Assembly (NCBI GenBank): GCA_026770025.1
Contig: JAMXDE010000085.1
Coordinates: 1-64,000, forward strand
Direction: 5' to 3'
Origin: Craspedostauros australis
Lineage: Eukaryota; Bacillariophyta; Bacillariophyceae; Mastogloiales; Achnanthaceae
Length of the DNA stretch: 64,000 nt
Part shown: piece after piece, positions 1 through 61,728 of the stretch
Layout: every line of letters begins with the position of its first letter
How positions within the stretch are numbered: the stretch's first letter is position 1
Made by a program: the position numbers and the translations under genes
Notes under the pieces: model-generated
The model's input: the letters and a program-made list of their open reading frames with translations, nothing else
What the model was told of the DNA's origin: nothing
Databases searched by the model: none

Positions 1-3000
1 TTTGTGAAATAGAAATTTAATTTTTTTTTATTATTTAAGAATGATTTAAAACTTAAGATCGTACGCGGGCAAATATGACTAAAAATGTTATATTTTAGGT
101 AAAGGTCTTTGATATGTCTTTTTATTCGATTTTGTGTGAATTTTGATAAAAAAGGTGTTACTATTAAGTTTCGTATGAGATTGTAGTTGAAATAATGCAT
201 GAAGGATAGATGTGATTATTGGAATGACAGCGATAAAATTTTTTAGGGTTAATTTGTTATTAAATTAGAAGAATCGTTAGTTGATTTTAATCATTTGGTC
301 CGATTTTAAAATAAATTTGAGTTGATGGCATTCTGTAAATTTAAAGAACTTTAGAGATTTTTTAGGCGGAAGACTCGTGTTACGAACTAAGGTTACAAAC
401 AAGTAAAATCGACGGATTCAAAGTCTTCAAGGTTCAAATAATGTATTTAGTACTCAAATTTGACGAATTCATAAAAGGATATAGTAGCATAAAATTGCTT
501 TAATGTATCTATATAATTATCTAAATTAGACATGAGAGCATTTTATTCAATCGACTGTTTTAAGGGAATTAATATTTTTTTTAATGTTAATGAGGGTGAT
601 TTGGGTGATAATATATGTTATATTTAATATAAGTATGGTTATATTTTATATTGATAGGTCGTATGTGAGTGTTTTTATTGATTATGTAGTTTTTCGTTAG
701 AGACGTTTATAGTTATTAAGTCAAAATATGTATTAGTTTTTCCAAGACGATCTTGACGAATTGTTTCATTTTTTGTAAAATAGAAATTTAATCTTTTTTT
801 ATTATTTAGGAATGATTTAAAACTTAAGATGGTACGCGGGCAAATATGACTAAAAATGTCATATTTTAGGTAAAAAGGTCTTTGATATGTCTTTTTATTC
901 GATTTTGTGTGAATTTTGATAAAAAAGGTGTTACTATTAAATTTCGTATGAGATTGTAGTTGAAATAATGCATGAAGGATAGATGTGATTATTGGAATGA
1001 CAGCGATAAAATTTTTTAGGGTTAATTTGTTATTAAATTAGAAGAATCGTTAGTTGATTTTAATCATTTAGTCCGATTTTAAAATAAATTTGAGTTGATG
1101 GCATTCTGTAAATTTAAAGAACTTTAGAGATTTTTTAGACGGAAGACTCGTGTTACGAACTAAGGTTACAAACAAGTAAAATCGGCGGATTCAAAATCTT
1201 CAAGGTTCAAATAATGGTACTTAGTACTCAAATTTGACGAATTCATAAAATGACATAGTAGTATAAAATTGCTTTAATGTATCTATATAATTATCTAAAT
1301 TAGACATGAGAGCATTTTATTCAATCGACTGTTTTAAGGGAATTAATGTTTTTTTTAATGTTAATGAGGGTGATTTGGGTGATAATATATGTTATATTTA
1401 ATATAAGTATGGTTATATTTTATATTGATAGGTCGTATGTGAGTGTTTTTATTGATTATGAAGTTTTTCGTTAGAGACGTTTATAGTTATTAAGTTGAAA
1501 TATGTATTAGTTTTTCCAAGACGATCTTGACGAATTGTTTCATTTTTTGTGAAATAGAAATTTAATTTTTTTATTATTATTTAGAAATGGTTTAAAACTT
1601 AAGATCGCACACGGGCAAATGTAACTAAAAGTATTATGCCGTGTTTTGAGTTATTATGCACGTATTTGACTTATATAAGTGTATCATATAGATCTTAGTA
1701 AATTTAATACATTTATGAGTGATTTTTAAGATTTAATGTTTTTTTTAATGTATACAGAATCGCTTCATTTTTTGTGAAACAAAAATTTAACCTTTTTTGT
1801 ATTGTTTAGAAATGATTTAAAACTCAAGATCACACGCAGGCAAATGTGATTAAAAGTATTCTATTTTAGTTAAGGATTTTTGATATGTCTTCTTATTAGA
1901 TTTTGTATGAATTTTGATAAAAAAAGGTGTCACTATCAAGTTTTGTATGAAATTGTAGTTGAAATCAAGCATGAAGGATAGATGTGATTATTGGAATGGC
2001 GGCGGTAAAATTTTCTAGAGTTAATTTGTTATTAAATTAAAAGAATCGCTAGTTGATTTTAATCATTTAGTTCGATTTTAAAATAAATTTGGGTTGATGG
2101 CATTTTTTGTAAATTCAAAGAACTTTAAAGATTTTTTAGACGGAAGACTTATGTTACGAACTAAGGTTACAAACAAGTAAAATTGACGGATTCAAAGCCT
2201 TCAAGGTTTAAATAATGTACTTAGCACTCAAATTTGACGAATTCATAAAAGGATATAGTGGTATAGAATTGCTTTAATGTATTTATATAAACATACAAAT
2301 TAGAAATGGGAGCATTCTATTCAATCGATTGTTTTAAAGGAATTAGTGAAAATTTTAATGTTAATGAGGGTGATTTGGGTGATAATATATGTTATATTTA
2401 ATATAAGTATAGTTATACTTTATATTGCTAGGCCGTATGTGAGTGTTTTTATTGATTATGTGATTTTTCGTTAGAGACGTTTATTGTTATTAAGTTAAAA
2501 TACGTATTAGTTTTTCCAAGATGATCTTGACGAATTGTTTCATTTTTTGTGAAACAAAAATTTAACCTTTTTCGTATTGTTTAGAAATGATTTAAAACTC
2601 AAGATCACACGCAGGCAAATGTGATTAAAAGTATTCTATCTTAGTTAAGGATTTTTGATATGTCTTCTTATTAGATTTTGTATGAATTTTGATAAAAAAG
2701 GTGTCACTATCAAGTCTTGTATGAAATTGTAGTTGAAATCAAGCATGAAGGATAGACGTGATTATTGGAATGGCGGCGATAAAATTTTCTAGAGTTAATT
2801 TATTATTAAATTAGAAGAATTGCTAGTTGATTTTAATCATTTAGTCCGATTTTAGAATAAATTCGGGTTGATGGCATTTTGCAAGTTTAAAAAAGTTTAA
2901 GGATTTTTTAGACGGGAGACTTGTGGCGCGGACGAGGGTTACAAACAAGTAAAATGGGCTGATCCAAAGTCTTCAAGGTTTAAACAATGTACTTATCACT

Positions 3001-3303
3001 TAAATTTGATGAGTTTATAAAACGATATTGCAGTATAAAATCGCTTTAATGGGTTTATATAAACATACAAATTAGACATGAGAGCATTTTATTCAATCGA
3101 CTATTTTAAGGGAATTAGTGAAAATGTTAATGGGGATGATTTGGGTGATAATACATGTTATATTTAATATAGGTATAGTTATATTTTATATTAATAGGTT
3201 GTATGTTAGTGTTTTTATTGATTATGTAGGTTTTAGTTAGAGACGTTTATAGTTATTAAGTTGAAATATGTATTAGTTTTTCCAAGACGATCTTGACGAA
3301 TTG

Positions 3304-4198
3304 TTTCATTTTTTGTGAAATAGAAATTTAATCTTTTTTATTATTTAGCAATGGTTTAAAACTTAAGATCGCACACGGGCAAATGTAACTAAAAGTATTA
3401 TGCCGTGTTTTGAGTTATTATGCACGTATTTGATTTACATAAGTGTATCATATAGATCTCAGTAAATTTAATACATTTATGAGTGATTTTTAAGATTTAA
3501 TGTTTTTTTTAATGTATACAGAATCGTTTCATTTTTTGTGAAATAGAAATTTAACCTTTTTTTATTATTTAGGAATGGTTTAAAACTTAAGACAGCACAC
3601 GGGCAAATGTAACTAAAAGTATTGTGCCGTGTTTTGAGTTATTATGCACGTATTTGACTTACATAAGTGTATCATATAGATCTTAGTAAATTTAATACAT
3701 TCATGAGCGATTTTTAAGATTTAATGTTTTTTTTAATGTATACAGAATCGTTTCATTTTTTGTGAAATAGAAATTTAACCTTTTTTTATTACTTAGAAAT
3801 GGTTTAAAACTTAAGATCGTACACGGGCAAATGTAACTAAAAGTATTGTGCCGTGTTTTGAGTTATTATGCACGTATTTGACTTACATAAGTGCATCATA
3901 TAGATCTTAGTAAATTTAATACATTTATGAGTGATTTTTAAGATTTAATGTTTTTTCTAATGTACACAGAATCGTTTCATTTTTTGTGAAATAGAAATTT
4001 AACCTTTTTTTATTATTTAGGAATGGTTTAAAACTTAAGATCGCACACGGGCAAATGTAACTAAAAGTATTATACCGTGTTTTGAGTTATTATGCACGTA
4101 TTTGACTTACATAAGTGTATCATATAGATCTTAGTAAATTTAATACATTCATGAGTGATTTTTGAGATTTAATGTTTTTTTTAATGTATACAGAATCG
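3304..4198 (+). repeat. Four tandem short (S) units
   Basis: Heads at 3304, 3527, 3751 and 3975, spacing 223-224 bp. Each S unit has the shared head (hairpin, T-run, GGTTTAAAACTTAAGA, a CACACGGGCAAATG box) and then an S-specific tail with TGCCGTGTTTTGAGTTATTA, CATATAGATCT and a TTAATG-T-run-AATGTATACAG end. They are followed directly by a long unit carrying the 25-nt head deletion (4199). Confidence 0.92.
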
Positions 4199-4940
4199 TT
4201 TCATTTTTTGTATTGTTTAGAAATGATTTAAAACTCAAGATCACACGCAGGCAAATGTGATTAAAAGTATTCTATTTTAGTTAAGGATTTTTGATATGTC
4301 TTCTTATTAGATTTTGTATGAATTTTGATAAAAAAAGGTGTCACTATCAAGTTTTGTATGAAATTGTAGTTGAAATCAAGCATAAAGGATAGATGTGATT
4401 ATTGGAATGGCGGCGATAAAATTTTCTAGAGTTAATTTATTATTAAATTAGAAGAATTGCTAGTTGATTTTAATCATTTAGTCCGATTTTAGAATAAATT
4501 CGGGTTGATGGCATTTTGCAAGTTTAAAAAAGTTTAAGGATTTTTTAGACGGGAGACTTATGGCGCGGACGAGGGTTACAAACAAGTAAAATGGGCGGAT
4601 TAAAAGTCTTCAAGGTTTAAACAATGTACTTAGCACTTAAATTTGATGAATTTATAAAACGATATTGCAGTATAAAATCGCTTTAATGGGTTCATATAAA
4701 CATACAAATTAGACATGGTAGCATTCCATTCAATCGACTATTTTAAGGGAATTAGTGAAAATGTTAATGAGGATGATTTGGGTGATAATACATGTTATAT
4801 TTAATATAAGTATAGTTATATTTTATATTGATAGGTTGTATGTGAGTGTTTTTATTGATTATGTAGGTTTTAGTTAGAGACGTTTATAGTTATTAAGTTA
4901 AAATATGTATTAGCTTTTCTAAAATGATCTTGACGAATTG
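4199..4940 (+). repeat. L2 long unit with 25-nt head deletion
   Basis: The head reads CATTTTTTGTATTG where intact L2 units (for example 7482) have CATTTTTTGTGAAAC, about 17 intervening bases and a second TTTTTTGT before ATTG. The missing 25 nt lie exactly between two TTTTTTGT direct repeats. The same deletion recurs in the units at 57031 and 60214. Confidence 0.88.
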
Positions 4941-7256
4941 TTTCATTCTTTGTGAAATAGAAATTTAATCTTTTTTTATTATTTAAGAATGATTTAAAAC
5001 TTAAGATCGTACGCGGGCAAATATGACTAAAAATGTTATATTTTAGGTAAAGGTCTTTGATATGTCTTTTTATTCGATTTTGTGTGAATTTTGATAAAAA
5101 AGGTGTTACTATTAAGTTTCGTATGAGATTGTAGTTGAAATAATGCATGAAGGATAGATGTGATTATTGGAATGACAGCGATAAAATTTTTTAGGGTTAA
5201 TTTGTTATTAAATTAGAACAATCGTTAGTTGATTTTAATCATTTAGTCCGATTTTAAAATAAATTTGAGTTGATGGCATTCTGTAAATTTAAAGAACTTT
5301 AGAGATTTTTTAGACGGAAGACTCGTGCTACGAACTAAGGCTACAAACAAGTAAAATCGGCGGATTCAAAGTCTTCAAGGTTCAAATAATGGTACTTAGT
5401 ACTCAAATTTGACGAATTCATAAAATGACATAGTAGTATAAAATTGCTTTAATGTATCTATATAATTATCTAAATTAGACATGAGAGCATTTTATTCAAT
5501 CGACTGTTTTAAGGGAATTAATGTTTTTTTTAATGTTAATGAGGGTGATTTGGGTGATAATATATGTTATATTTAATATAAGTATGGTTATATTTTATAT
5601 TGATAGGTCGTATGTGAGTGTTTTTATTGATTATGTAGGTTTTAGTTAGAGACGTTTATAGTTATTAAGTTAAAATATGTATTAGCTTTTCTAAAATGAT
5701 CTTGACGAATTGTTTCATTCTTTGTGAAATAGAAATTTAATCTTTTTTTATTATTTAAGAATGATTTAAAACTTAAGATTGTACGCGGGCAAATATGACT
5801 AAAAATGTTATATTTTAGGTAAAGGTCTTTGATATGTCTTTTTATTCGATTTTGTGTGAATTTTGATAAAAAAGGTGTTACTATTAAGTTTCGTATGAGA
5901 TTGTAGTTGAAATAATGCATGAAGGATAGATGTGATTATTGGAATGACAGCGATAAAATTTTTTAGGGTTAATTTGTTATTAAACTAGAAGAATCGTTAG
6001 TTGATTTTAATCATTTAGTCCGATTTTAAAATAAATTTGAGTTGATGGCATTCTGTAAATTTAAAGAACTTTAGAGATTTTTTAGACGGAAGACTCGTGT
6101 TACGAACTAAGGCTACAAACAAGTAAAATCGGCGGATTCAAAGTCTTCAAGGTTCAAATAATGGTACTTAGTACTCAAATTTGACGAATTCATAAAATGA
6201 CATAGTAGTATAAAATTGCTTTAATGTATCTATATAATTATCTAAATTAGACATGAGAGCATTTTATTCAATCGACTGTTTTAAGGGAATTAATGTTTTT
6301 TTTAATGTTAATGAGGGTGATTTGGGTGATAATATATGTTATATTTAATATAAGTATGGTTATATTTTATATTGATAGGTCGTATGTGAGTGTTTTTATT
6401 GATTATGTAGGTTTTAGTTAGAGACGTTTATAGTTATTAAGTTAAAATATGTATTAGCTTTTCTAAAATGATCTTGACGAATTGTTTCATTCTTTGTGAA
6501 ATAGAAATTTAATCTTTTTTTATTATTTAAGAATGATTTAAAACTTAAGATCGTACGCGGGCAAATATGACTAAAAATGTTATATTTTAGGTAAAGGTCT
6601 TTGATATGTCTTTTTATTCGATTTTGTGTGAATTTTGATAAAAAAGGTGTTACTATTAAGTTTCGTATGAGATTGTAGTTGAAATAATGCATGAAGGATA
6701 GATGTGATTATTGGAATGACAGCGATAAAATTTTTTAGGGTTAATTTGTTATTAAATTAGAAGAATCGTTAGTTGATTTTAATCATTTAGTCCGATTTTA
6801 AAATAAATTTGAGTTGATGGCATTCTGTAAATTTAAAGAACTTTAGAGATTTTTTAGACGGAAGACTCGTGTTACGAACTAAGGCTACAAACAAGTAAAA
6901 TCGGCGGATTCAAAGTCTTCAAGGTTCAAATAATGGTACTTAGTACTCAGATTTGACGAATTCATAAAATGACATAGTAGTATAAAATTGCTTTAATGTA
7001 TCTATATAATTATCTAAATTAGACATGAGAGCATTTTATTCAATCGACTGTTTTAAGGGAATTAATGTTTTTTTTAATGCTAATGAGGGTGATTTGGGTG
7101 ATAATATATGTTATATTTAATATAAGTATGGTTATATTTTATATTGATAGGTCGTATGTGAGTGTTTTTATTGATTATGTAGTTTTTCGTTAGAGACGTT
7201 TATAGTTATTAAGTTGAAATATGTATTAGTTTTTCCAAGACGATCTTGACGAATTG
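4941..7256 (+). repeat. Three tandem L1 long units with exact 772-bp period
   Basis: Three successive L1 units start at 4941, 5713 and 6485, and the next head is at 7257, so the period is exactly 772 bp each time. The copies are almost identical by eye, with scattered single-base differences (for example GATCGT versus GATTGT near 4995 and 5780). This is the most homogeneous stretch of the left array and looks like recent tandem amplification or gene conversion. Confidence 0.92.
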
Positions 7257-10200
7257 TTTCATTTTTTGTGAAATAGAAATTTAATTTTTTTTTTATTATT
7301 TAGAAATGGTTTAAAACTTAAGATCGCACACGGGCAAATGTAACTAAAAGTATTATGCCGTGTTTTGAGTTATTATGCACGTATTTGACTTACATAAGTG
7401 TATCATATAGATCTTAGTAAATTTAATACATTTATGAGTGATTTTTAAGATTTAATGTTTTTTTTAATGTATATAGAATCGTTTCATTTTTTGTGAAACA
7501 AAAATTTAACCTTTTTTGTATTGTTTAGAAATGATTTAAAACTCAAGATCACACTCAGGCAAATGTGATTAAAAGTATTCTATTTTAGTTAAGGATTTTT
7601 GATATGTCTTCTTATTAGATTTTGTATGAATTTTGATAAAAAAAGGTGTCACTATCAAGTTTTGTATGAAATTGTAGTTGAAATCAAGCATGAAGGATAG
7701 ACGTGATTATTGGAATGGCGGCGATAAAATTTTCTAGAGTTAATTTATTATTAAATTAGAAGAATTGCTAGTTGATTTTAATCATTTAGTCCGATTTTAG
7801 AATAAATTCGGGTTGATGGCATTTTGCAAGTTTAAAAAAGTTTAAGGATTTTTTAGACGGGAGACTTATGGCGCGGACGAGGGTTACAAACAAGTAAAAT
7901 GGGCGGATTAAAAGTCTTCAAGGTTTAAACAATGTACTTAGCACTTAAATTTGATGAATTTATAAAACGATATTGCAGTATAAAATCGCTTTAATGGGTT
8001 TATATAAACATACAAATTAGACATGAGAGCATTTTATTCAATCGACTATTTTAAGGGAATTAGTGAAAATGTTAATGAGGATGATTTGGGTGATAATACA
8101 TGTTATATTTTATATTGATAGGTTGTATGTTAGTGTTTTTATTGATTATGTAGGTTTTAGTTAGAGACGTTTATAGTTATTAAGTTGAAATATGTATTAG
8201 TTTTTCCAAGACGATCTTGACGAATTGTTTCATTTTTTGTGAAATAGAAATTTAATCTTTTTTATTATTTAGCAATGATTTAAAACTTAAGATCGCACAC
8301 GGGCAAATGTAACTAAAAGTATTATGCCGTGTTTTGAGTTATTATGCACGTATTTGATTTACATAAGTGTATCATATAGATCTCAGTAAATTTAATACAT
8401 TTATGAGTGATTTTTAAGATTTAATGTTTTTTTTAATGTATACAGAATCGTTTCATTTTTTGTGAAATAGAAATTTAATCTTTTTTTATTATTTAGGAAT
8501 GATTTAAAACTTAAGATCGTACACGGGCAAATGTAACTAAAAATATTATATCGTGTTTTGAGTTATTATGCACGTATTTGACTCACATAAGTGTATCATA
8601 TAGATCTTAGTAAATTTAATACATTCAGGAGTGATTTTTAAGATTTAATGTTTTTTTTAATGTATACAGAATCGTTTCATTTTTTGTGAAACAAAAATTT
8701 AATCTTTTTTGTATTGTTTAGAAATGATTTAAAACTTAAGATCACCCGCAGGCAAATGTGACTAAAAGTATTCTATCTTAGTTAAGGATCTTTGATATGT
8801 CTTCTTATTAGATTTTGTATGAATTTTGATAAAAAAAGGTGTCACTATCAAGTTTTGTATGAAATTGTAGTTGAAATCAAGCATGAAGGATAGATGTGAT
8901 TATCGGAATGGCGGCGATAAAATTTTCTAGAGTTAATTTATTATTAAATTAGAAGAATTGCTAGTTGATTTTAATCATTTAGTCCGATTTTAGAATAAAT
9001 TCGGGTTGATGGCATTTTGCAAGTTTAAAAAAGTTTAAGGATTTTTTAGACGGGAGACTTATGGCGCGGACGAGGATTATAAACAAGTAAAATCGACGGA
9101 TTCAAAGCCTTCAAGGTTCAAACAATGTACTTAGCACTCAAATTTGACGAATTCATAAAAGGATATAGTAGTATAGAATTGCTTTAATGTATTTATATAA
9201 ACATACAAATTAGAGATGGGAGCATTCTATTCAATCGATTGTTTTAAAGGAATTAGTGAAAATTTTAATGTTAATGAGGGTGATTTGGGTGATAATACAT
9301 GTTATATTTAATATAAGTATGGTTATACTTTATATTGCTAGGCCGTATGTGAGTGTTTTTATTGATTATGTAATTTTTCGTTAGAGACGTTTATAGTTAT
9401 TAAGTTTAAATATGTATCAGTTTTTCCAAGATCATCTTGACGAATTGTTTCATTTTTTGTGAAATAGAAATTTAATCTTTTTTTATTATTTAGGAATGAT
9501 TTAAAACTTAAGATTGTACGCGGGCAAATATGACTAAAAATGCTATATTTTAGGTAAAAGGTCTTTGATATGTCTTTTTATTCGATTTTGTGTGAATTTT
9601 GATAAAAAAGGTGTCACTATTAAGTTTTCGCATGAGATTATATTTGAAATAATGCATGAAGGATAGATGTGATTATTGGAATGGCAGCGATAAAATTTTC
9701 TAGGGTTAATTTGTTATTAAATTAGAAGAATCGCTAGTTGATTTTAATCATTTAGTCCGATTTTAGAATAAATTCGGGTTGATGGCATTTTGTAAATTTA
9801 AAGAAGTTTAAAGATTTTTTAGACGGAAGACTCGTGTTACGAATTAAGGTTACAAACAAGTAAAATCGACGGATTCAAAGTCTTCAAGGTTCAAATAATG
9901 TACTTAGCACTCAAATTTGACGAATTCATAAAAGGACATAGTAGTATAAAATTGCTTTAATGTATCTATATAAGTATTTAAATTAGACATGACAGCATTT
10001 TATTCAATCGACTGTTTTAAGGGAATTAACGTTTTTTTAATGTTAATGAGGGTGATCTGGGTGGTAATATATGTTATATTTAATATAAGTATGGTTATAT
10101 TTTATATTGATAGGTCGTATGTGAGTGTTTTTATTGATTATGCAGTTTTTCGTTAGAGAGGTTTATAGTTATTAAGTTAAAATACGTATTAGTTTTTCCA

Positions 10201-11413
10201 AAACGGTCTTGACGAATTGTTTCATTTCCTGTGAAATAGAAATTTAATCTTTTTTTATTATTTAGGAGTGATTTAAAACTTAAGACCACACGCGGGCAAA
10301 TGTGACTAAAAGTATTATACTGTGTTTTGAGTTATTATACGCGTATTTGATTCACGTAAGTGTACCATATAGATTTTAGTAAATTTAATACATTTATGAG
10401 TGATTTTTAATATTTAATGTTTTTTTTAATGTATACAGAATCGTTTCATTTTTTGTGAAACAGAAATTTAACCTTTTTTTATTATTTAGGAATGGTTTAA
10501 AACTTAAGATCGTACACGGGCAAATGTAACTAAAAGTATTGTGCCGTGTTTTGAGTTATTATGCACGTATTTGACTTACATAAGTGTATCATATATATCT
10601 TAGTAAATTTAATACATTTATGAGTGATTTTTAAGATTTAATGTTTTTTTTAATGTATACGGAATTGTTTCATTTTTTGTGAAACAAAAGTTTAACCTTT
10701 TTTGTATTGTTTAGAAATGATTTAAAACTCAAGATCATATGCAGGCAAATGTGATTAAAAATATTCTATTTTAGTTAAGGATTTTTGATATGTCTTCTTA
10801 TTAGATTTTGTATGAATCTTGATAAAAAAAGGTGTCACTATCAAGTTTTGTATGAAATTGTAGTTGAAATCAAGCATAAAGGATAGACGTGATTATTGGA
10901 ATGGCGGCGATAAAATTTTCTAGAGTTAATTTATTATTAAATTAGAAGAATTGCTAGTTGATTTTAATCATTTAGTCCGATTTTAGAATAAATTCGGGTT
11001 GATGGCATTTTGCAAGTTTAAAAAAGTTTAAGGATTTTTTAGACGGGAGACTTATGGCGCGGACGAGGATTACAAATAAGTAAAATGGGCGGATTAAAAG
11101 TCTTCAAGGTTTAAACAATGTACTTAGCACTTAAATCTGATGAATTTATAAAACGATATTGCAGTATAAAATCGCTTTAATGGGTTTATATAAACATACA
11201 AATTAGACATGAGAGCATTCTATTCAATCGACTATTTTAAGGGAATTAGTGAAAATGTTAATGAGGATGATTTGGGTGATAATACATGTTATATTTAATA
11301 TTGATAGGTTGTATGTGAGTGTTTTTATTGATTATGTAGGTTTTAGTTAGAAACGTTTATAGTTATTAAGTTAAAATATGTATTAGCTTTTCTAAAATGA
11401 TCTTGACGAATTG

Positions 11414-13400
11414 TTTCATTCTTTGTGAAATAGAAATTTAATCTTTTTTTATTATTTAAGAATGATTTAAAACTTAAGATCGTACGCAGGCAAATATGAC
11501 TAAAAATGTTATATTTTAGGTAAAAGGTCTTTGATATGTCTTTTTATTCGATTTTGTGTGAATTTTGATAAAAAAGGTGTTACTATTAAGTTTCGTATGA
11601 GATTGTAGTTGAAATAATGCATAAAGGATAGATGTGATTATTGGAATGACAGCGATAAAATTTTTTAGGGTTAATCTGCTATTAAATTAGAAGAATCGTT
11701 AGTTGATTTTAATCATTTAGTCCGATTTTAAAATAAATTTGAGTTGATGGCATTCTGTAAATTTAAAGAACTTTAGAGATTTTTTAGGCGGAAGACTCGT
11801 GTTACGAACTAAGGTTACAAATAAGTAAAATCGACGGATTCAAAGTCTTCAAGGTTCAAATAATGTACTTAGTACTCAAATTTGACGAATTCATAAAAGG
11901 ATATAGTAGCATAAAATTGCTTTAATGTATCTATATAATTATCTAAATTAGACATGAGAGCATTTTATTCAATCGACTGTTTTAAGGGAATTAATGTTTT
12001 TTTTAATGTTAATGAGGGTGATTTGGGTGATAATATATGTTATATTTAATATAAGTATGGTTATATTTTATATTGATAGGTCGTATGTGAGTGTTTTTAT
12101 TGATTATGTAGTCTTTCGTTAGAGACGTTTATAGTTATTAAGTCAAAATATGTATTAGTTTTTCCAAGACGATCTTGACGAATTGTTTCATTTTTTGTGA
12201 AATAGAAATTTAATCTTTTTTTATTATTTAGGAATGATTTAAAACTTAAGATGGTACGCGGGCAAATATGATTAAAAATGTCATATTTTAGGTAAAAAGG
12301 TCTTTGATATGTCTTTTTATTCGATTTTGTGTGAATTTTGATAAAAAAGGTGTTACTATTAAATTTCGTATGAGATTGTAGTTGAAATAATGCATGAAGG
12401 ATAGATGTGATTATTGGAATGACAGCGATAAAATTTTTTAGGGTTAATTTGTTATTAAATTAGAAGAATCGTTAGTTGATTTTAATCATTTAGTCCGATT
12501 TTAAAATAAATTTGAGTTGATGGCATTCTGTAAATTTAAAGAACTTTAGAGATTTTTTAGACGGAAGACTCATGTTACGAACCAAGGTTACAAACAAGTA
12601 AAATCGGCGGATTCAAAGTCTTCAAGGTTCAAATAATGGTACTTAGTACTCAAATTTGACGAATTCATAAAATGACATAGTAGTATAAAATTGCTTTAAT
12701 GTATCTATATAATTATCTAAATTAGACATGAGAGCATTTTATTCAATCGACTGTTTTAAGGGAATTAATGTTTTTTTTAATGTTAATGAGGGTGATTTGG
12801 GTGATAATATATGTTATATTTAATATAAGTATGGTTATATTTTATATTGATAGGTCGTATGTGAGTGTTTTTATTGATTATGTAGTTTTTCGTTAGAGAC
12901 GTTTATAGTTATTAAGTTGAAATATGTATTAGTTTTTCCAAGACGATCTTGACGAATTGTTTCATTTTTTGTGAAATAGAAATTTAATTTTTTTTTTATT
13001 GTTTAGAAATGGTTTAAAACTTAAGATCGCACACGGGCAAATGTAACTAAAAGTATTATGCCGTGTTTTGAGTTATTATGCGCGTATTTGACTTACATAA
13101 GTGTATCATATAGATCTTAGTAAATTTAATACATTTATGAGTGATTTTTAAGATTTAATGTTTTTTTTAATGTATACAGAATCGTTTCATTTTTTGTGAA
13201 ACAAAAATTTAACCTTTTTTGTATTGTTTAGAAATGATTTAAAACTCAAGATCACACGCAGGCAAATGTGATTAAAAGTATTCTATTTTAGTTAAGGATT
13301 TTTGATATGTCTTCTTATTAGATTTTGTATGAATTTTGATAAAAAAAGGTGTCACTATCAAGTTTTGTATGAAATTGTAGTTGAAATCAAGCATGAAGGA
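11414..13400 (+). repeat. Block duplicated from 1-1980 at 11,422-bp offset
   Basis: Unit heads at 12186, 12960 and 13185 lie exactly 11,422 bp from those at 764, 1538 and 1763. Diagnostic variants are shared: TTTAGGCGGAAG and AAGGATATAGTAGCAT in the first unit, and AAGATGGTACGCGGG with ATGTCATATTTTAGG in the second. The block is therefore a copied segment, not independently arranged units. Similarity fades inside the following L2 unit. Confidence 0.8.
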
Positions 13401-13930
13401 TAGACGTGATTATTGGAATGGCGGCGATAAAATTTTCTAGAGTTAATTTATTATTAAATTAGAAGAATTGCTAGTTGATTTTAATCATTTAGTCCGATTT
13501 TAGAATAAATTTGGGTTGATGGCATTTTGCAAGTTTAAAAAAGTTTAAGGATTTTTTAGACGGGAGACTTACGGCGCGGACGAGGGTTACAAACAAGTAA
13601 AATGGGCGGATTAAAAGTCTTCAAGGTTTAAACAATGTACTTAGCACTTAAATTTGATGAATTTATAAAACGATATTGCAGTATAAAATCGCTTTAATGG
13701 GTTTATATAAACATACAAATTAGACATGAGAGCATTTTATTCAATCGACTATTTTAAGGGAATTAGTGAAAATGTTAATGAGGATGATTTGGGTGATAAT
13801 ACATGTTATATTTTATATTGATAGGTCGTATGTTAGTGTTTTTATTGATTATGTAGGTTTTAGTTAGAGACGTTTATAGTTATTAAGTTAAAGTATTTAT
13901 TAGTTTTTCTAAAATGATCTTGACGAATTA

Positions 13931-14929
13931 TTTCATTTTTTGTGAAATAGAAATTTAATCTTTTTTTATTATTTAGGAATGATTTAAAACTTAAGATTGT
14001 ACGCGGGTAAATATGACTAAAAATGTTATATTTTAGGTAAAGGTCTTTGATATGTCTTTTTATTCGATTTTGTGTGAATTTTGATAAAAAAGGTGTCACT
14101 ATTAAGTTTTCGCATGAGATTATATTTGAAATAATGCATGAAGGATAGATGTGATTATTGGAATGGCAGCGATAAAATTTTCTAGGGTTAATTTGTTATT
14201 AAATTAGAAGAATCGCTAGTTGATTTTAATCATTTAGTCCGATTTTAGAATAAATTCGGGTTGATGGCATTTTGTAAATTTAAAGAAGTTTAAAGATTTT
14301 TTAGACGGAAGACTCGTGTTACGAATTAAGGTTACAAACAAGTAAAATCGACGGATTCAAAGTCTTCAAGGTTCAAATAACGTACTTAGCACTCAAATTT
14401 GACGAATTCATAAAAGGACATAGTAGTATAAAATTGCTTTAATGTATCTATATAAGTATTTAAATTAGACATGACAGCATTTTATTCAATCGACTGTTTT
14501 AAGGGAATTAATGTTTTTTAATGTTAATGAGGGTGATCTGGGTGGTAATATATGTTATATTTAATATAAGTATGGTTATATTTTATATTGATAGGTCGTA
14601 TGTGAGTGTTTTTATTGATTATGCAGTTTTTCGTTAGAGAGGTTTATAGTTATTAAGTTAAAATACGTATTAGTTTTTCCAAAACGGTCTTGACGAATTG
14701 TTTCATTTCTTGTGAAATAGAAATTTAATCTTTTTTTATTATTTAGGAATGATTTAAAACTTAAGACCACACGCGGGCAAATGTGATTAAAAGTATTATG
14801 CTGTGTTTTGAGTTATTATACGCGTATTTGATTCACGTAAGTGTACCATATAGATTTTAGTAAATTTAATACATTTATGAGTGATTTTTAAGATTTAATG
14901 TTTTTTTTAACGTATACAGGAAACTTCGT
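13931..14929 (+). repeat. Terminal L1'-S' block, copy of 9448-10443
   Basis: This long unit and the short unit after it carry private variants (TTTTCGCATGAGATTATATT in the long unit; ACGCGTATTTGATTCACG and TGTACCATATAGATTT in the short one) shared only with the block at 9448-10443, offset about 4,482 bp. The array ends at this block's last base. Confidence 0.82.
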
Positions 14930-15032: not shown

Positions 15033-15107
15033 GGTGAATATAACTCAGTTGGTTAGAGTACTAGGTTGTGATTCTAGGAGTCACAGGTTCAAATCCTGTT
15101 ATTCACC
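15033..15107 (+). tRNA. trnH: tRNA-His (GUG)
   Basis: A complete cloverleaf with anticodon GTG in a CTAGG/TCTAG-type arm. The acceptor GTGAATA (15034-15040) pairs with TATTCAC (15100-15106). The additional G at 15033 pairs with C 15107, giving the encoded G-1:C73 pair typical of bacterial-type tRNA-His. It is the first gene after the left repeat array and precedes rnl. Confidence 0.95.
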
Positions 15108-15124
15108 TCGACTTTTCTATTTTA

Positions 15125-17850: not shown

Positions 17851-17914
17851 TTTTTAATGTTTTTAAAAATTAATTTACATTTTTATTGGAAACTTTAGCT
17901 CTGTAAATCAATTT

Positions 17915-18835: not shown

Positions 18836-18868
<33 letters not shown>

Positions 18869-19001: not shown

Positions 19002-19038
<37 letters not shown>

Positions 19039-19468: not shown

Positions 19469-19469
19469 C

Positions 19470-52270: not shown

Positions 52271-52342
52271 GTTCTTATCGTCTAATGGTTAGGACATTAC
52301 CCTTTCACGGTAGAAATACGGGTTCAAATCCCGTTAAGAATA
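52271..52342 (+). tRNA. trnE: tRNA-Glu (UUC)
   Basis: Anticodon TTC in TACCC-TTTCACG-GTA-type arm; acceptor GTTCTTA pairs with TAAGAAT; T arm ACGGG-TTCAAAT-CCCGT. It is 5 bp before the nad11 5' half. Confidence 0.93.
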
Positions 52343-52347
52343 ATTCT

Positions 52348-52962
52348 ATGTCAAACCGCAATACTGTTAACCTAAACAAGGTTTCTCTATTGGCTTATTT
52401 AATAAATTTAGGTGTTTCTATACCTCATTATTGTTATCATAATAATTTATCTATTGCAGGTAATTGTAGAATGTGTATTGTTGAAATGGGTAATTTGCCA
52501 AAACCTGTAGTTGCCTGCGCCGTAAGTGCAGGTGCTAGTCTGTTTACTCACGATATATACCATAACAGTGGTCTTGTAAAAAAAGCTCGAGAAAATGTTA
52601 TGGAGTTCCTTTTATTGAATCATCCATTGGATTGTCCGATTTGTGATCAGGGTGGTGAATGTGATTTGCAAGATCAATCGCTTTTTTTTGGCTTGACCAA
52701 AAGAAGATTTTACAAGTTTAAACGAGCTGTTATGGACAAGAATTTAGGTCCAATAGTTCGAACTGTAATGACACGGTGTATTCATTGCACTCGGTGCGTT
52801 CGATTTAGTGCAGAGATCGCTGGTTCCGAAGAACTTGGTGTATTTGGTCGAGGAAATTCTAGTGAAATTGGGACGTATGTAAGCAAAGTGTTACTATCTG
52901 AATTATCAGGTAATGTTATTGATTTGTGCCCTGTAGGAGTTCTTACACCAAATTTTAATTAA
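52348..52962 (+). CDS. nad11: Complex I subunit nad11, N-terminal Fe-S half (separate gene)
   Basis: 204-aa Fe-S part of the 75-kDa/NuoG subunit. The 2Fe-2S ligands are in [20 protein letters not shown] and PVVACAV; the His-Cys cluster is [18 protein letters not shown]; the 4Fe-4S ligands are [10 protein letters not shown] and IDLCPVG. All cluster ligands are present. The protein stops after [10 protein letters not shown], just where the NuoG molybdopterin-like domain should begin; that domain is a separate gene at 20450-22024. The ATG at 52348 after trnE is chosen over the open frame further upstream. Last gene before the repeats. Confidence 0.95.
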
Positions 52963-53006: not shown

Positions 53007-53097
53007 TGTGTGAGAATATTAACGTAAATTTTATTTAGTTTACTTGGTATGCGACAGTTGGGCTGCTTATATGCACGTTATCCTGGTTAATTGCATA

Positions 53098-53814
53098 ACG
53101 TTTACCGCTATTAAATTAAAATATGTATCGATTTTTCTAAGATTACCCTGATGAATTATTTCATTTTTTGTGAAACAGAAATTTTATTTAGGAATTGGTT
53201 TAAAATTTTGGATTATATGTAGACAAATGTAATTAAAAGTATTACATTTTAGGAAGGGTCTTTAATAGGTTTTTTCATTAGATCTTGTAGAAATTACGAT
53301 ACAAGAAGGACGTTATCATCAAGCTGCACGGTCGATTATATTTAAAGAAAAATATAAGATACAGGTATACGTATATTATGGTAAAATATAATTTTAAAAC
53401 GAAGGAAGCTTTTTAAAAGCAGAACAGATGCAAAAAAGTGTCTGTTGTCAGAAAGACTCGTATATTACGGTTAGAGTCAAAAGCTGTAGAAAGTTTGCTC
53501 GATGTCCGTAAATATTGAGCTTGCTGTATTATAAGGTCGCTTCGTTTTAGTCTGGTAAAGAAGTTCACGTCGTATAGCATAAAAAAAACATTAATTAATA
53601 AAATGAGAATTATTTAAGATTACTCGATTTTTTATGAAATAGAAACAAAGACCCTTAAACTGTTCAGGGTTGATATTTTACCTTGTAGAAATATAAAAAG
53701 TCTATTTAGAACGAAGTGTCTTTATTATGTTTCCTTATTGAGTTTTGTGACAGTTTCGATAAAAGAAAAGTATTACTATCAAGTTGCACATTGGACTGTA
53801 GTTGAAATAAAGTG
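53098..53814 (+). repeat. Decayed long-unit copies at the array edge
   Basis: No gene here. 53098-53360 follows the long unit in order with many substitutions and gaps: ATTAAATTAAAATATGTAT, the TTTCATTTTTTGTGAAAC head (53159 on), then a ATTAAAAGTATT box and an ACGTTATCATCAAGCTGCAC equivalent of the GTGTCACTATCAAGTTTTG box. A second, more broken copy runs from about 53620 to 53814 (TTTTATGAAATAGAAAC head, ACTATCAAGTTGCACATTGG). 53360-53620 is probably also decayed repeat but cannot be aligned by eye. Confidence 0.75.
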
Positions 53815-56359
53815 TGATCATTGGAGTGGCGGTGATGAAATTTTTTAAAGTTAATTTGTTATTAAATTACAAGAATCGCTAGTTGATTTTAATCATTTAG
53901 TTCCATTTTAGAATAAATTTGGGAAAAAATTCGGGTTGATGGCATTTTGCAAATTTAAAAAAATTTAAGGATTTTTTAGACGGGAGACTTATGGCGCGGA
54001 CAAGGGTTACAAACAAGTAAAATGGGCGGATTAAAAGTCTTCAAGGTTTAAACAATGTACTTAGCACTTAAATTTGATGAATTTATAAAACGATATTGCA
54101 GTATAAAATCGCTTTAATGGGTTTATATAAACATACAAATTAGACATGGGAGCATTTTATTCAATCGACTATTTTAAGGGAATTAGTGAAAATGTTAATG
54201 AGGATGATTTGGGTGATAATACATGTTATATTTAATATAAGTATAGTTATATTTTATATTGATAGGTTGTATGTGAGTGTTTTTATTGATTATGTAGGTT
54301 TTAGTTAGAGACGTTTATAGTTATTAAGTTAAAATATGTATTAGCTTTTCTAAAATGATCTTGACGAATTGTTTCATTCTTTGTGAAATAGAAATTTAAT
54401 CTTTTTTTATTATTTAAGAATGATTTAAAACTTAAGATCGTACGCGGGCAAATATGACTAAAAATGTTATATTTTAGGTAAAGGTCTTTGATATGTCTTT
54501 TCATTCGATTTTGTGTGAATTTTGATAAAAAAGGTGTTACTATTAAGTTTCGTATGAGATTGTAGTTGAAATAATGCATGAAGGATAGATGTGATTATTG
54601 GAATGACAGCGATAAAATTTTTTAGGGTTAATTTGTTATTAAATTAGAAGAATCGTTAGTTGATTTTAATCATTTAGTTCGATTTTAAAATAAATTTGGG
54701 TTGATGGCATTTTTTGTAAATTCAAAGAACTTTAAAGATTTTTTAGACGGAAGACTTATGTTACGAACTAAGGTTACAAACAAGTAAAATCGACGGATTC
54801 AAAGCCTTCAAGGTTTAAATAATGTACTTAGCACTCAAATTTGACGAATTCATAAAAGGATATAGTGGTATAGAATTGCTTTAATGTATCTATATAAACA
54901 TACAAATTAGAAATGGGAGCATTCTATTCAATCGATTGTTTTAAAGGAATTAGTGAAAATTTTAATGTTAATGAGGGTGATTTGGGTGATAATATATGTT
55001 ATATTTAATATAAGTATAGTTATACTTTATATTGCTAGGCCGTATGTGAGTGTTTTTATTGATTATGTGATTTTTCGTTAGAGACGTTTATAGTTATTAA
55101 GTTAAAATACGTATTAGTTTTTCCAAGATGATCTTGACGAATTGTTTCATTTTTTGTGAAATAGAAATTTAATTTTTTTTTTTTATTTAGGAATGGTTTA
55201 AAACTTAAGATCACACACGGGCAAATGTAACTAAAAGTATTATGCCGTGTTTTGAGTTAGTATGCACGTATTTGACTTACATAAGTGTATCATATAGATC
55301 TTAGTAAATTTAATACATTTATGAGTGATTTTTAAGATTTAATGTTTTTTTTAATGTATACAGAATCGTTTCATTTTTTGTGAAATAGAAATTTAACCTT
55401 TTTTTATTATTTAGGAATGGTTTAAAACTTAAGATCGTACACGGGCAAATGTAACTAAAAGTATTGTGCCGTGTTTTGAGTTATTATGCACGTATTTGAC
55501 TTACATAAGTGTATCGTATAGATCTTAGTAAATTTAATACATTTATGAGTGATTTTTAAGATTTAATGTTTTTTTTAATGTATACAGAATCGTTTCATTT
55601 TTTGTGAAACAAAAATTTAACCTTTTTTGTATTGTTTAGAAATGATTTAAAACTCAAGATCACACGCAGGCAAATGTGATTAAAAGTATTCTATCTTAGT
55701 TAAGGATTTTTGATATGTCTTCTTATTAGATTTTGTATGAATTTTGATAAAAAAAGGTGTCACTATCAAGTTTTGTATGAAATTGTAGTTGAAATCAAGC
55801 ATGAAGGATAGATGTGATTATCGGAATGGCGGCGATAAAATTTTCTAGAGTTAATTTATTATTAAATTAGAAGAATTGCTAGTTGATTTTAATCATTTAG
55901 TTCGATTTTAGAATAAATTCGGGTTGATGGCATTTTGCAAGTTTAAAAAAGTTTAAGGATTTTTTAGACGGGAGACTTATGGCGCGGACGAGGGTTACAA
56001 ACAAGTAAAATCGACGGATTCAAAGCCTTCAAGGTTTAAACAATGTACTTAGCACTTAAATTTGATGAATTTATAAAATGATATTGCAGTATAAAATCGC
56101 TTTAATGGGTTTATATAAACATACAAATTAGACATGAGAGCATTTTATTCAATCGACTATTTTAAGGGAATTAGTGAAAATGTTAATGAGGATGACTTGG
56201 GTGATAATACATGTTATATTTAATATAGGTATAGTTATACTTTATATTGATAGGTTGTATGTGAGCGTTTTTATTGATTATGTAGGTTTTAGTTAGAGAC
56301 GTTTATAGTTATTAAGTTGAAATATGTATTAGTTTTTCCAAGACGATCTTGACGAATTG

Positions 56360-58544
56360 TTTCATTTTTTGTGAAATAGAAATTTAATCTTTTTTATTAT
56401 TTAGCAATGGTTTAAAACTTAAGATCGCACACGGGCAAATGTAACTAAAAGTATTATGCCGTGTTTTGAGTTATTATGCACGTATTTGATTTACATAAGT
56501 GTATCATATAGATCTCAGTAAATTTAATACATTTATGAGTGATTTTTAAGATTTAATGTTTTTTTTAATGTATACAGAATCGTTTCATTTTTTGTGAAAT
56601 AGAAATTTAACCTTTTTTTATTATTTAGGAATGGTTTAAAACTTAAGACCGCACACGGGCAAATGTAACTAAAAGTATTATACCGTGTTTTGAGTTATTA
56701 TGCACGTATTTGACTTACATAAGTGTATCATATAGATCTTAGTAAATTTAATACATTTATGAGTGATTTTTAAGATTTAATGTTTTTTTTAATGTATACA
56801 GAATCGTTTCATTTTTTGTGAAATAGAAATTTAACCTTTTTTTATTATTTAGGAATGGTTTAAAACTTAAGATCGTACACGGGCAAATGTAACTAAAAGT
56901 ATTGTGCTGTGTTTTGAGTTATTATGCACGTATTTGACTTACATAAGTGTATCACATAGATCTTAGTAAATTTAATACATTTATGAGTGATTTTTAAGAT
57001 TTAATGTTTTTCTTAATGTATACAGAATCGTTTCATTTTTTGTATTGTTTAGAAATGATTTAAAACTCAAGATCACACGCAGGCAAATGTGATTAAAAGT
57101 ATTCTATTTTAGTTAAGGATTCTTGATATGTCTTCTTATTAGATTTTGTATGAATTTTGATAAAAAAAGGTGTCACTATCAAGTTTTGTATGAAATTGTA
57201 GTTGAAATCAAGCATGAAGGATAGATGTGATTATTGGAATGGCGGCGATAAAATTTTCTAGAGTTAATTTATTATTAAATTAGAAGAATTGCTAGTTGAT
57301 TTTAATCATTTAGTCCGATTTTAGAATAAATTCGGGTTGATTGCATTTTGCAAGTTTAAAAAAGTTTAAGGATTTTTTAGACGGGAGACTTATGGCGCAG
57401 ACGAGGGTTACGAACAAGTAAAATGGGCGGATTAAAAGTCTTCAAGGTTTAAACAATGTACTTAGCACTTAAATTTGATGAATTTATAAAACGATATTGC
57501 AGTATAAAATCGCTTTAATAGGTCTATATAAACATACAAATTAGACATGGGAGCATTTTATTCAATCGACTATTTTAAGGGAATTAGTGAAAATGTTAAT
57601 GAGGATGATTTGGGTGATAATACATGTTATATTTAATATAAGTATAGTTATATTTTATATTGATAGGTTGTATGTGAGTGTTTTTATTGATTATGTAGGT
57701 TTTAGTTAGAGACGTTTATAGTTATTAAGTTAAAGTATGTATTAGTTTTTCTAAAATGATCTTGGCGAATTGTTTCATTTTTTGTGAAATAGAAATTTAA
57801 TCTTTTTTTATTTTTTAGGAATGATTTAAAACTTAAGATCGTACGCGGGCAAATATAACTAAAAATGTTATATTTTAGGTAAAGGTCTTTGATATGTCTT
57901 TTTATTCGATTTTGTGTGAATTTTGATAAAAAAGGTGTTACTATTAAGTTTCGTATGAGATTGTAGTTGAAATAATGCATGAAGGATAGATGTGATTATT
58001 GGAATGACAGCGATAAAATTTTTTAGGGTTAATTTGTTATTAAATTAGAAGAATCGTTAGTTGATTTTAATCATTTAGTCCGATTTTAAAATAAATTTGA
58101 GTTGACGGCATTCTGTAAATTTAAAGAACTTTAGAGATTTTTTAGACGGAAGACTCGTGTTACGAACTAAGGTTACAAACAAGTAAAATCGGCGGATTCA
58201 AAGTCTTCAAGGTTCAAATAATGGTACTTAGTACTCAAATTTGACGAATTCATAAAAGGACATAGTAGTATAAAATTGCTTCAATGTATCTACATAATTA
58301 TCTAAATTAGACATGAGAGCATTTTATTCAATCGACTGTTTTAAGGGAATTAATGTTTTTTTTAATGTTAATGAGGGTGATTTGGGTGATAATATATGTT
58401 ATATTTAATATAAGTATGGTTATATTTTATATCGATAGTTCGTATGTGAGTGTTTTTATTGATTATGTAGTTTTTCGTTAAAGACGTTTATAGTTATTAA
58501 GTTAAAGTATGTATTAGTTTTTCCAAAACGGTCCTGACGAATTG
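56360..58544 (+). repeat. Higher-order block S-S-S-L2(del)-L1
   Basis: Three short units (56360, 56583, 56807), the 25-nt-deleted L2 (57031) and an L1 unit (57773) with AAAGTATGTATTAG and TTTTTTAGGAATG variants. The same series recurs at 59543-61728 at offsets of 3183-3184 bp. Confidence 0.85.
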
Positions 58545-59318
58545 TTTCATTTTTTGTGAAATAGAAATTTAATCTTTTTTTATTATTTAGGAATGATTTA
58601 AAACTTAAGATCACAGGCAGGCAAATGTGACTAAAAGTATTCTATCTTAGTTAAGGATCTTTGATATGTCTTTTTATTAGATTTTGTGTGAATTTTGATA
58701 AAAAAAGGTGTCACTATCAAGTTTTGTATGAAATTGTAGTTGAAATCAAGCATGAAGGATAGATGTGATTATTGGAATGGCGGCGGTAAAATTTTCTAGA
58801 GTTAATTTGTTATTAAATTAAAAGAATCGCTAGTTGATTTTAATCATTTAGTTCGATTTTAAAACAAATTTGGGTTGATGGCACTTTTTGTAAATTCAAA
58901 GAACTTTAAAGATTTTTTAGACGGAAGACTTATGTTACGAACTAAGGTTACAAACAAGTAAAATTGACGGATTCAAAGCCTTCAAGGTTTAAATAATGTA
59001 CTTAGCACTCAAATTTGACGAATTCATAAAAGGATATAGTGGTATAGAATTGCTTTAATGTATCTATATAAACATACAAATTAGAAATGGGAGCATTCTA
59101 TTCAATCGATTGTTTTAAAGGAATTAGTGAAAATTTTAATGTTAATGAGGGTGATTTGGGTGATAATATATGTTATATTTAATATAAGTATAGTTATACT
59201 TTATATTGCTAGGCCGTATGTGAGTGTTTTTATTGATTATGTGATTTTTCGTTAGAGACGTTTATAGTTATTAAGTTAAAATACGTATTAGTTTTTCCAA
59301 GATGATCTTGACGAATTG

Positions 59319-61728
59319 TTTCATTTTTTGTGAAATAGAAATTTAATTTTTTTTTATTATTTAGGAATGGTTTAAAACTTAAGATCGCACACGGGCAAAT
59401 GTAACTAAAAGTATTGTGCCGTGTTTTGAGTTATTATGCATGTATTTGACTTACATAAGTGTATCATATAGATCTCAGTAAATTTAATACATTTATGAGT
59501 GATTTTTAAGATTTAATGTTTTTTTTAATGTATACAGAATCGTTTCATTTTTTGTGAAATAGAAATTTAACCTTTTTTTATTATTTAGGAATGGTTTAAA
59601 ACTTAAGACCGCACACGGGCAAATGTAACTAAAAGTATTATACCGTGTTTTGAGTTATTATGCACGTATTTGACTTACATAAGTGTATCATATAGATCTT
59701 AGTAAATTTAATACATTTATGAGTGATTTTTAAGATTTAATGTTTTTTTTAATGTATACAGAATCGTTTCATTTTTTGTGAAATAGAAATTTAACCTTTT
59801 TTTATTATTTAGGAATGGTTTAAAACTTAAGATCGCACACGGGCAAATGTAACTAAAAGTATTATACCGTGTTTTGAGTTATTATGCACGTATTTGACTC
59901 ACATAAGTGTATCATATAGATCTTAGTAAATTTAATACATTCATGAATGATTTTTAAGATTCAATGTTTCTTTTAATGTATACAGAATCGTTTCATTTTT
60001 TGTGAAATAGAAATTTAACCTTTTTTTATCATTTAGGAATGGTTTAAAACTTAAGATCGTACACGGGCAAATGTAACTAAAAGTATTGTGCCGTGTTTTG
60101 AGTTATTATGCACGTATTTGACTTACATAAGTGTATCACATAGATCTTAGTAAATTTAATACATTTATGAGTGATTTTTAAGATTTAATGTTTTTTTAAT
60201 GTATACAGAATCGTTTCATTTTTTGTATTGTTTAGAAATGATTTAAAACTCAAGATCACACGCAGGCAAATGTGATTAAAAGTATTCTATTTTAGTTAAG
60301 GATTTTTGATATGTCTTCTTATTAGATTTTGTATGAATTTTGATAAAAAAAGGTGTCACTATCAAGTTTTGTATGAAATTGTAGTTGAAATCAAGCATGA
60401 AGGATAGATGTGATTATTGGAATGGCGGCGATAAAATTTTCTAGAGTTAATTTATTATTAAATTAGAAGAATTGCTAGTTGATTTTAATCATTTAGTCCG
60501 ATTTTAGAATAAATTCGGGTTGATGGCATTTTGCAAGTTTAAAAAAGTTTAAGGATTTTTTAGACGAGAGACTTATGGCGCAGACGAGGGTTACGAACAA
60601 GTAAAATGGGCGGATTAAAAGTCTTCAAGGTTTAAACAATGTACTTAGCACTTAAATTTGATGAATTTATAAAACGATATTGCAGTATAAAATCGCTTTA
60701 ATAGGTTTATATAAACATACAAATTAGACATGGGAGCATTTTATTCAATCGACTATTTTAAGGGAATTAGTGAAAATGTTAATGAGGATGATTTGGGTGA
60801 TAATATATGTTATATTTAATATAAGTATAGTTATATTTTATATTGATAGGTTGTATGTGAGTGCTTTTATTGACTATGTAGGTTTTAGTTAGAGACGTTT
60901 ATAGTTATTAAGTTAAAGTATGTATTAGTTTTTCTAAAATGATCTTGACGAATTGTTTCATTTTTTGTGAAATAGAAATTTAATCTTTTTTTATTTTTTA
61001 GGAATGATTTAAAACTTAAGATTGTACGCGGGCAAATATGACTAAAAACGTTATATTTTAGGTAAAAGGTCTTTGATATGTCTTTTTATTCGATTTTGTG
61101 TGAATTTTGATAAAAAAGGTGTTACTATTAAGTTTCGTATGAGATCGTAGTTGAAATAATGCATGAAGGATAGATGTGATTATTGGAATGACAGCGATAA
61201 AATTTTTTAGGGTTAATTTGTTATTAAATTAGAAGAATCGTTAGTTGATTTTAATCATTTAGTCCGATTTTAAAATAAATTTGAGTTGATGGCATTCTGT
61301 AAATTTAAAGAACTTTAGAGATTTTTTAGACGGAAGACTCGTGTTACGAACTAAGGTTACAAACAAGTAAAATGGGCGGATTAAAAGTCTTCAAGGTTCA
61401 AATAATGGTACTTAGTACTCAAATTTGACGAATTCATAAAATGACATAGTAGTACAAAATTGCTTTAATGTATCTATATAATTATCTAAATTAGACATGA
61501 GAGCATTTTATTCAATCGACTGTTTTAAGGGAATTAATGTTTTTTTTAATGTTAATGAGGGTGATTTGGGTGATAATATATGTTATATTTAATATAAGTA
61601 TGGTTATATTTTATATTGATAGGTCGTATGTGAGTGTTTTTATTGATTATGTAGTCTTTCGTTAGAGACGTTTATAGTTATTAAGTTGAAATATGTATTA
61701 GTTTTTCCAAGACGATCTTGACGAATTG
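59319..61728 (+). repeat. Higher-order block S-S-S-S-L2(del)-L1
   Basis: Four short units (59319, 59543, 59767, 59991), the 25-nt-deleted L2 (60214) and an L1 (60956). It matches the block at 56360-58544 except for one more S unit, so short units are gained or lost within blocks. Confidence 0.85.

What the first reader, a model, noticed from the sequence alone, without database searches (positions are those of the whole stretch)
1..14929. Two-family composite repeat array sharing one head module
Every unit, long or short, opens with the same ~90-bp head and then switches to an L-specific (~650 bp) or S-specific (~130 bp) tail. S and L1 tails also share the 19-nt TTAATG-T8-AATGT segment, which could be the microhomology that created S from L by internal deletion or template switching. 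With the right array this is at least 25 kb, about 39% of the window, carrying no credible gene.
Basis: seen in the sequence. Interest (0 to 1): 0.75.

Follow-up and report, generated by a model that had tools for sequence, protein, structure and literature searches.

The report
Diatom mitochondrial repeat array, three-class composite
The stretch is one part of a 28-kilobase non-coding repeat block in what looks like a diatom's circular mitochondrial genome, a kind of region already known from other diatoms, here with an unusually readable record of how two repeat families were spliced together by recombination.

Summary
Units of two sizes (223-225 bp S, 742-775 bp L) open with a shared head of about 105 bp. 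The left and right arrays are one: the window is most of a 66,256-bp circle with mitochondrial genes in diatom order, and the contig ends fall inside the array. On the circle it spans 53153 to about 14918: 28 kb (42%), 53 heads, no credible gene. Large non-coding repeat regions are known in diatom mitogenomes, so the kind is known. The anatomy is the new detail. L has two main classes, Lb and La. Twelve blocks follow one grammar: 1-4 S, then Lb, then (8 of 12) La. The head is mosaic: columns 5 and 35 follow the preceding unit, columns 59-108 the unit's own tail, so S and L runs join inside the head. Origin of S by internal deletion of L is not supported: S lacks L's 3' end, and outside a ~30-nt patch its tail resembles no L. 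That patch (19 identical nt) beats shuffles but occurs only in La, which more likely gained it. I found no structural, compositional or conservation sign of function; expansion by recombination is the best reading. The species was not identified.

The parts
1..14918 (+). Left part of the array; on the 66,256-bp circle it continues from 66256. The last S unit is 14695-14918
   Evidence: nothing convincing of a further head after 14918 (best E 0.09)
53153..64000 (+). Right part of the same array (continues outside the window to 66256 and then to base 1)
53097..53151 (+). Diverged remnant of an L tail at the left edge
   Evidence: 78% over 55 bp
53153..54365 (+). Most diverged edge unit: head plus start 72% (53153-53323), L tail 82% (53718-54365); between them only a 32-nt minus-strand match was found
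55139..56353 (+). Block S S Lb
56354..59312 (+). Block S S S Lb La Lb (the last L, 58539, is a mosaic unit)
59313..61722 (+). Block S S S S Lb La
61723..64000 (+). Block S Lb La La (cut by the window end)
1532..3297 (+). Block S Lb Lb; the unit at 1757 is a recombinant with an Lb 5' part and the 3' part of unit 58539
3298..7250 (+). Block S S S S Lb La La La
7251..8221 (+). Block S Lb
8222..10213 (+). Block S S Lb La
10214..12953 (+). Block S S Lb La La
12954..14694 (+). Block S Lb La
3521..3625 (+). Example of the shared head (about 105 bp) in an S unit
4193..4934 (+). Lb unit with a 25-bp head deletion between two TTTTTTGT repeats (the same deletion at 57025 and 60208)
15033..15109 (+). trnH, first gene after the array, followed by rnl (15126-17853) and rns (18001-19476)
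52285..52962 (+). nad11a (Fe-S domains), last gene found before the array; the molybdopterin half (nad11b) lies at 20450-22024

Best explanation
It is the single large non-coding repeat region of a diatom mitochondrial genome. Two tandem families, S and L, share a head of about 105 bp. Homologous exchange inside that head, between about columns 36 and 59, joined S runs to L runs and gave a composite unit S(1-4)-Lb-La(0-3). Further unequal exchange, gene conversion and copying of blocks of about 1-3.6 kb then expanded and shuffled it to 28 kb. Shown here from sequence: shared head, mosaic head, unit grammar, recombinant L units, block copies, a decayed left edge. Inferred: that exchange happened by homologous recombination or recombination-dependent replication, and that the array has no sequence-specific role and persists because it is tolerated. 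The placement among diatoms is not resolved.
For: Circle: C83 overlaps itself by 13,496 bp with 0 mismatches at period 66,256; C89, a second contig starting elsewhere, repeats the circle with one extra A at 13928 and two bases short. Mitochondrial genes, rRNAs and tRNAs; the order rps8-rpl6-rps2-rps4..rps12-rps7-rpl14-rpl5-nad1-tatC..rpl2..rps3-rpl16..nad4L-nad11 agrees with the cluster given for diatoms in PMC7800273; split nad11, which PMC8987724 reports in Bacillariophyceae and Mediophyceae. One nuclear light-harvesting protein has its best PDB matches in fucoxanthin chlorophyll proteins. Mosaic head: column 5 is C in 21 of 23 heads after S and 0 of 29 after L (p = 1e-12), while columns 59, 80, 92 and 108 follow the unit's own class. 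Grammar: 12 of 12 L units after S are Lb, 0 of 14 La units follow S. Recombinants: unit 1757 matches an Lb at 271/277 in its 5' part and unit 58539 at 494/498 in its 3' part. Block copies: five pairs of 1.1-3.6 kb at 96-98% (which listed only pairs over 900 bp at 96% or more). Left edge unit 72-82%.
Against: Simple local unequal crossing-over predicts that neighbours are most alike; they are not (Spearman -0.07 for S, 0.006 for L; median distance to the best match 19.5 and 12.5 units, no nearer than permuted), so block copying over long distances must be invoked. The right edge unit is not decayed (97.8% to its best match). Only two head columns (5 and 35) carry the strong link to the preceding unit. 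rps10 lies outside the cluster here (26752) but heads it in PMC7800273. No reads were available, so exchange between molecules was not observed. Lack of function is an argument from absence.
Confidence: 0.75

Rival explanations
1. The array is a functional control region: the head is a repeated origin or promoter element that starts replication or drives transcription of the adjacent trnH-rnl-rns genes.
For: It lies just upstream of trnH-rnl-rns; an origin was suggested for the Asterionella region and, as cited there, for two cryptophytes (PMC7800273); the head occurs 53 times.
Against: At the most diverged edge the head (71-72%) is no better kept than the tail (82%). Whole units fold no better than shuffles (RNA parameters, z from -0.85 to 1.89 in 6 folds of 3 units); 2 overlapping windows of 106 fall below z -2.5, both in the S tail. 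GC skew is positive in all 32 windows of 2 kb, so no switch point is seen. The array's base make-up is near that of fourfold sites (C 0.083 in both; G 0.18 against 0.13).
Confidence: 0.15
2. S arose from L by internal deletion or template switching at the shared 19-nt TTAATG-T8-AATGT segment.
For: The 19-nt run exceeds shuffles (0 of 3000 reach 19), and 28 of 30 columns align around it.
Against: 0 of 24 S units carry ATCTTGAC, the end of most L units; the rest of the S tail has no similarity to L; the segment is absent from the 14 Lb-class units and from the diverged edge unit.
Confidence: 0.06
3. The order of units is an assembly artefact.
For: Repeats are a classic source of mis-assembly; no reads were seen.
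Against: Two contigs with different start points agree over 66,254 circle positions with one 1-base difference, and the units carry many differences. Both contigs come from one assembly, so this is not fully independent.
Confidence: 0.05

Closest known systems
Repeat region of the Asterionella formosa mitogenome (61.9 kb; 24.9 kb repeats; PMC7800273, whole text read)
   Same: One long coding-free block of tandem repeats in a diatom mitogenome, next to nad11; contig longer than one turn; a group II intron with a reverse transcriptase in cox1; much of the same ribosomal-protein/nad cluster
   Different: There it lies between trnQ and nad11; here between nad11a and trnH-rnl, with trnQ at 31682. 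rps10 heads the cluster there and lies elsewhere here. Unit sequences could not be compared; that paper says they are not conserved between species
[quoted passage not shown] passages in PMC8283788, PMC3423374, PMC8987724)
   Same: Large array of several tandem elements in various combinations
   Different: Described as including five elements of 33-404 bp; here two sizes, ~224 and ~770 bp, with a common head. G+C 36.7% there, 26% here
Nitzschia inconspicua mitochondrial spacer, 19 kb (PMC8329260, passages)
   Same: Large coding-free spacer in a 69.6-kb mitogenome, no Rfam match
   Different: Described there as holding many low-complexity repeats
Satellite arrays with higher-order repeats (recalled, general knowledge)
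   Same: Composite unit of diverged monomers, one edge decayed
   Different: No similarity gradient between neighbours; a mitochondrial, not centromeric, setting

Membership tests
Large repeat region of diatom mitogenomes | Lies in a mitochondrial genome of diatom gene content | tested here: met
   (33 of 38 ORFs of 100 aa or more have a Pfam match, one of them, rps2, below its cut-off) against the gene cluster; split nad11; atp8, rps11, rps19 and atp9 were not identified; species not identified
Large repeat region of diatom mitogenomes | A single contiguous block of tandem repeats | tested here: met
   the 46 matches and the 40 all lie within the array in C83 and C89 (only the best 40 candidates of 74 and 73 were scored)
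Large repeat region of diatom mitogenomes | No coding sequence inside | tested here: met
Large repeat region of diatom mitogenomes | Repeat sequence related to that of a described diatom | not testable with these tools
   I found no diatom mitogenome to compare with; three viral-contig scans found no relative
Satellite array under unequal crossing-over | Decayed edge units | tested here: inconclusive
   left edge decayed (72-82%), right edge not (97.8% to its best match)
Satellite array under unequal crossing-over | Adjacent units most alike | tested here: not met
Satellite array under unequal crossing-over | Length variation between molecules | not testable with these tools
   no reads
Mitochondrial origin or control region | Skew switch point at the array | tested here: not met
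   skew positive in 32 of 32 windows of 2 kb
Mitochondrial origin or control region | Stable hairpins | tested here: not met
   three units and 106 sub-windows, RNA parameters only
Mitochondrial origin or control region | Mapped replication or transcription start | not testable with these tools
   needs experiment

The most novel reading that the evidence does not exclude
The head is an active exchange module: breaks or replication restarts occur preferentially in it, so mitochondrial replication in this diatom is recombination-driven and starts or restarts at up to 53 sites, which keeps assembling S and L families into new composite units.
Probability: 0.12. Interest if true: 0.6.

Novelty: new member of a known kind. 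Interest (0 to 1): 0.3.

Why it matters
Diatom mitochondrial repeat regions are often left unresolved by short reads (PMC7800273; PMC12949581). This one is complete in the assembly and its units are diverged enough to be told apart, so it gives a readable record of how such regions grow: two families joined through a shared module, then copied in blocks over long distances. It would let the origin hypothesis be tested at a named element.

Tried and rejected
the S-tail against L alignment in that script was void because a search string was missing from the L consensus; redone. In some searches the last S unit was taken as 245 bp and so held 21 bases beyond its end; one search then gave it 89% to its best match. 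Trimmed to 224 bp it has 97.8%, so an earlier claim of a decayed right edge was dropped and the confidence of the best explanation lowered from 0.78 to 0.75. The permutation test still used the untrimmed unit (1 of 24).

Function tests that gave nothing: folding, skew, Rfam, head copies elsewhere in the circle (best E 7.6e-4 over 25 AT-rich bases, taken as chance). The 4-fold comparison used 15 plus-strand genes and two minus-strand ORFs, one of which has no Pfam match. Strand-asymmetric substitutions between L units (singletons T>C 37 of 304 T sites against A>G 7 of 260 A sites; in S units 12 of 98 against 6 of 73) were not turned into a claim, because direction was read from majority states, not a tree.

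Relatives: three scans of viral contigs found none. The plastid family PF00223 was not found in this assembly, but 61 chlorophyll-binding matches were, so the plastid contig is probably just missing. Of two light-harvesting proteins tried, one (L018) had no PDB match at 1e-5 and the other (L019) matched well. Species not identified: I recognised no matching assembly in the listings of paper searches.
Full report
What the window is. It is bases 1-64000 of contig C83 (79,752 bp) in a 74.8-Mb, 90-contig assembly. C83 overlaps itself at a period of 66,256 with 0 mismatches over 13,496 bp. C89 (66,255 bp) starts 36,512 bases further on and covers the same circle with one extra A at circle position 13928 and two bases short at its end. 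The circle carries rnl, rns, 24 tRNAs and respiratory and ribosomal protein genes: of 38 ORFs of 100 aa or more, 33 have a Pfam match (rps2 below its cut-off) and 5 have none. It is a mitochondrial genome. The order rps8-rpl6-rps2-rps4..rps12-rps7-rpl14-rpl5-nad1-tatC..rpl2..rps3-rpl16..nad4L-nad11 agrees with the diatom cluster in PMC7800273 (whole text); rps10, which heads that cluster there, lies at 26752 here, and atp8, rps11, rps19 and atp9 were not identified. nad11 is split, and PMC8987724 (passages) reports split nad11 in Bacillariophyceae and Mediophyceae. One nuclear light-harvesting protein has its best PDB matches in fucoxanthin chlorophyll proteins; a second one tried had none at 1e-5. 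I call the host a diatom with high but not full confidence.

The array. It lies between nad11a and trnH-rnl. There are 53 heads: 24 S units (223-225 bp), 28 L units (742-775 bp) and one diverged edge unit. Heads align over about 105 bp. No gene was found in it, in the window or in the 2.3 kb beyond it. Two DNA searches of the whole assembly with array pieces returned 46 and 40 matches, all in C83 and C89 (only the best 40 candidates of 74 and 73 were scored), so no nuclear copy was seen among those.

Classes and grammar. At 78 diagnostic sites L units fall into La and Lb, with several mosaics that share a third 3' pattern (units 58539, 1757, 54366, 8669). Unit 1757 matches an Lb unit at 271/277 in its 5' part and unit 58539 at 494/498 in its 3' part; unit 54366 matches La at 274/275 and then 58539 at 493/498. 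Units are ordered: 12 of 12 L units that follow S are Lb, 0 of 14 La units follow S, 2 Lb-class units follow L. Twelve blocks result, 971-3953 bp long, 8 of them with La. Blocks recur at a distance, for example 61723-65357 with 10438-14030 at 96% over 3.6 kb.

The head is a junction. Column 5 is T in 29 of 29 heads after L and C in 21 of 23 after S (the exceptions are the units at 65476 and 10662); column 35 behaves alike (T in 28 of 29 after L; C in 18 of 23 after S, 3 gaps, 2 T). Columns 59, 80, 92 and 108 instead follow the unit's own class: at column 108, C in 23 of 24 S and T in 28 of 28 L; at column 80, A in 21 of 24 S and G in 27 of 28 L. Other variable columns on the left (24, 26, 43, 48) are linked to both about equally. 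Both kinds of junction, L to S and S to L, therefore change identity in the same interval of the head; put otherwise, the true boundary between units lies inside it. This is what exchange between an S array and an L array within their shared homology would leave. Three Lb units also share a 25-bp deletion between two TTTTTTGT copies inside the head; each follows a run of 3 or 4 S units.

Origin of S. The 19-nt run is real: 19 of 24 S and 9 of 29 long units have it exactly, no shuffle of 3000 shares 19 or more, and 3 of 2000 reach the alignment score. But the rest of the S tail is not L-like (77 and 92 of 300 shuffles reach the scores against La and Lb), no S unit has the usual 3' end of L, and the 14 Lb-class units and the most diverged edge unit have another sequence at that place. 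I read it as a short tract copied from S into La, and not as the scar of a deletion that made S. The direction rests on the edge unit standing for the older state, which is an inference.

Dynamics. The left edge unit is strongly diverged (72% and 82% segments); the right edge unit is not (97.8% to its best match). Similarity does not fall with distance and best matches are no closer than permuted ones. Copying of multi-unit blocks fits this better than plain neighbour-to-neighbour unequal crossing-over.

Function. The head at the diverged edge is no better kept than the tail. Six whole-unit folds have z between -0.85 and 1.89. GC skew is positive in all 32 windows of 2 kb; fourfold sites of 15 plus-strand genes have a skew of 0.22 and the array 0.37, and 135 fourfold sites of two minus-strand ORFs read on the plus strand give 0.31, so the array seems to share a genome-wide strand bias, more strongly. 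An origin has been suggested for such regions (PMC7800273); nothing here supports or excludes it firmly.

Literature. Diatom mitochondrial repeat regions of about 5 to 35 kb are described (passages: PMC3423374, PMC8987724, PMC7693118, PMC8329260, PMC12949581; the 2011 primary paper was not read). Some diatoms are reported to lack one (PMC7799578, passages). None of the passages I saw describes a shared-head composite of this form, but I did not read the primary repeat papers, so I make no claim of first description. The kind is known; the anatomy is the new part.

Noticed in passing
34540-38383: cox1 is split by a group II intron: exon 1 within 34540-35796, a reverse transcriptase/maturase/HNH ORF at 35800-37956, a group II domain match at 37983-38063 and exon 2 at 38072-38383.
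   Followed up: yes
13928 (circle position): The only internal difference between contigs C83 and C89: one extra A in C89, inside an array head.
   Followed up: yes
53572-53603: A 32-nt minus-strand match (84%, E 7e-4) to the end of an S unit inside the diverged edge unit; possibly an inverted S remnant.
   Followed up: no
array, L units: Singleton differences between L units are strand-asymmetric on the plus strand: T>C 37 of 304 T sites, A>G 7 of 260 A sites.
   Followed up: no
whole assembly G000: No PsaA/PsaB match although 61 chlorophyll-binding matches exist: the plastid genome seems absent from the assembly.
   Followed up: partly
4870-5148 and similar places: A 92-aa antisense ORF (code 4) recurs in seven places on the circle, at junctions into La units or the unit at 54366; the one tested has no significant Pfam match. 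Likely chance in repeated DNA.
   Followed up: partly
39206-39523, 39463-40146, 47705-48172, 48347-48907: Four ORFs among the mitochondrial genes, outside the array, without a Pfam match at 1e-3; likely fast-evolving ribosomal or ATPase genes, not identified.
   Followed up: partly
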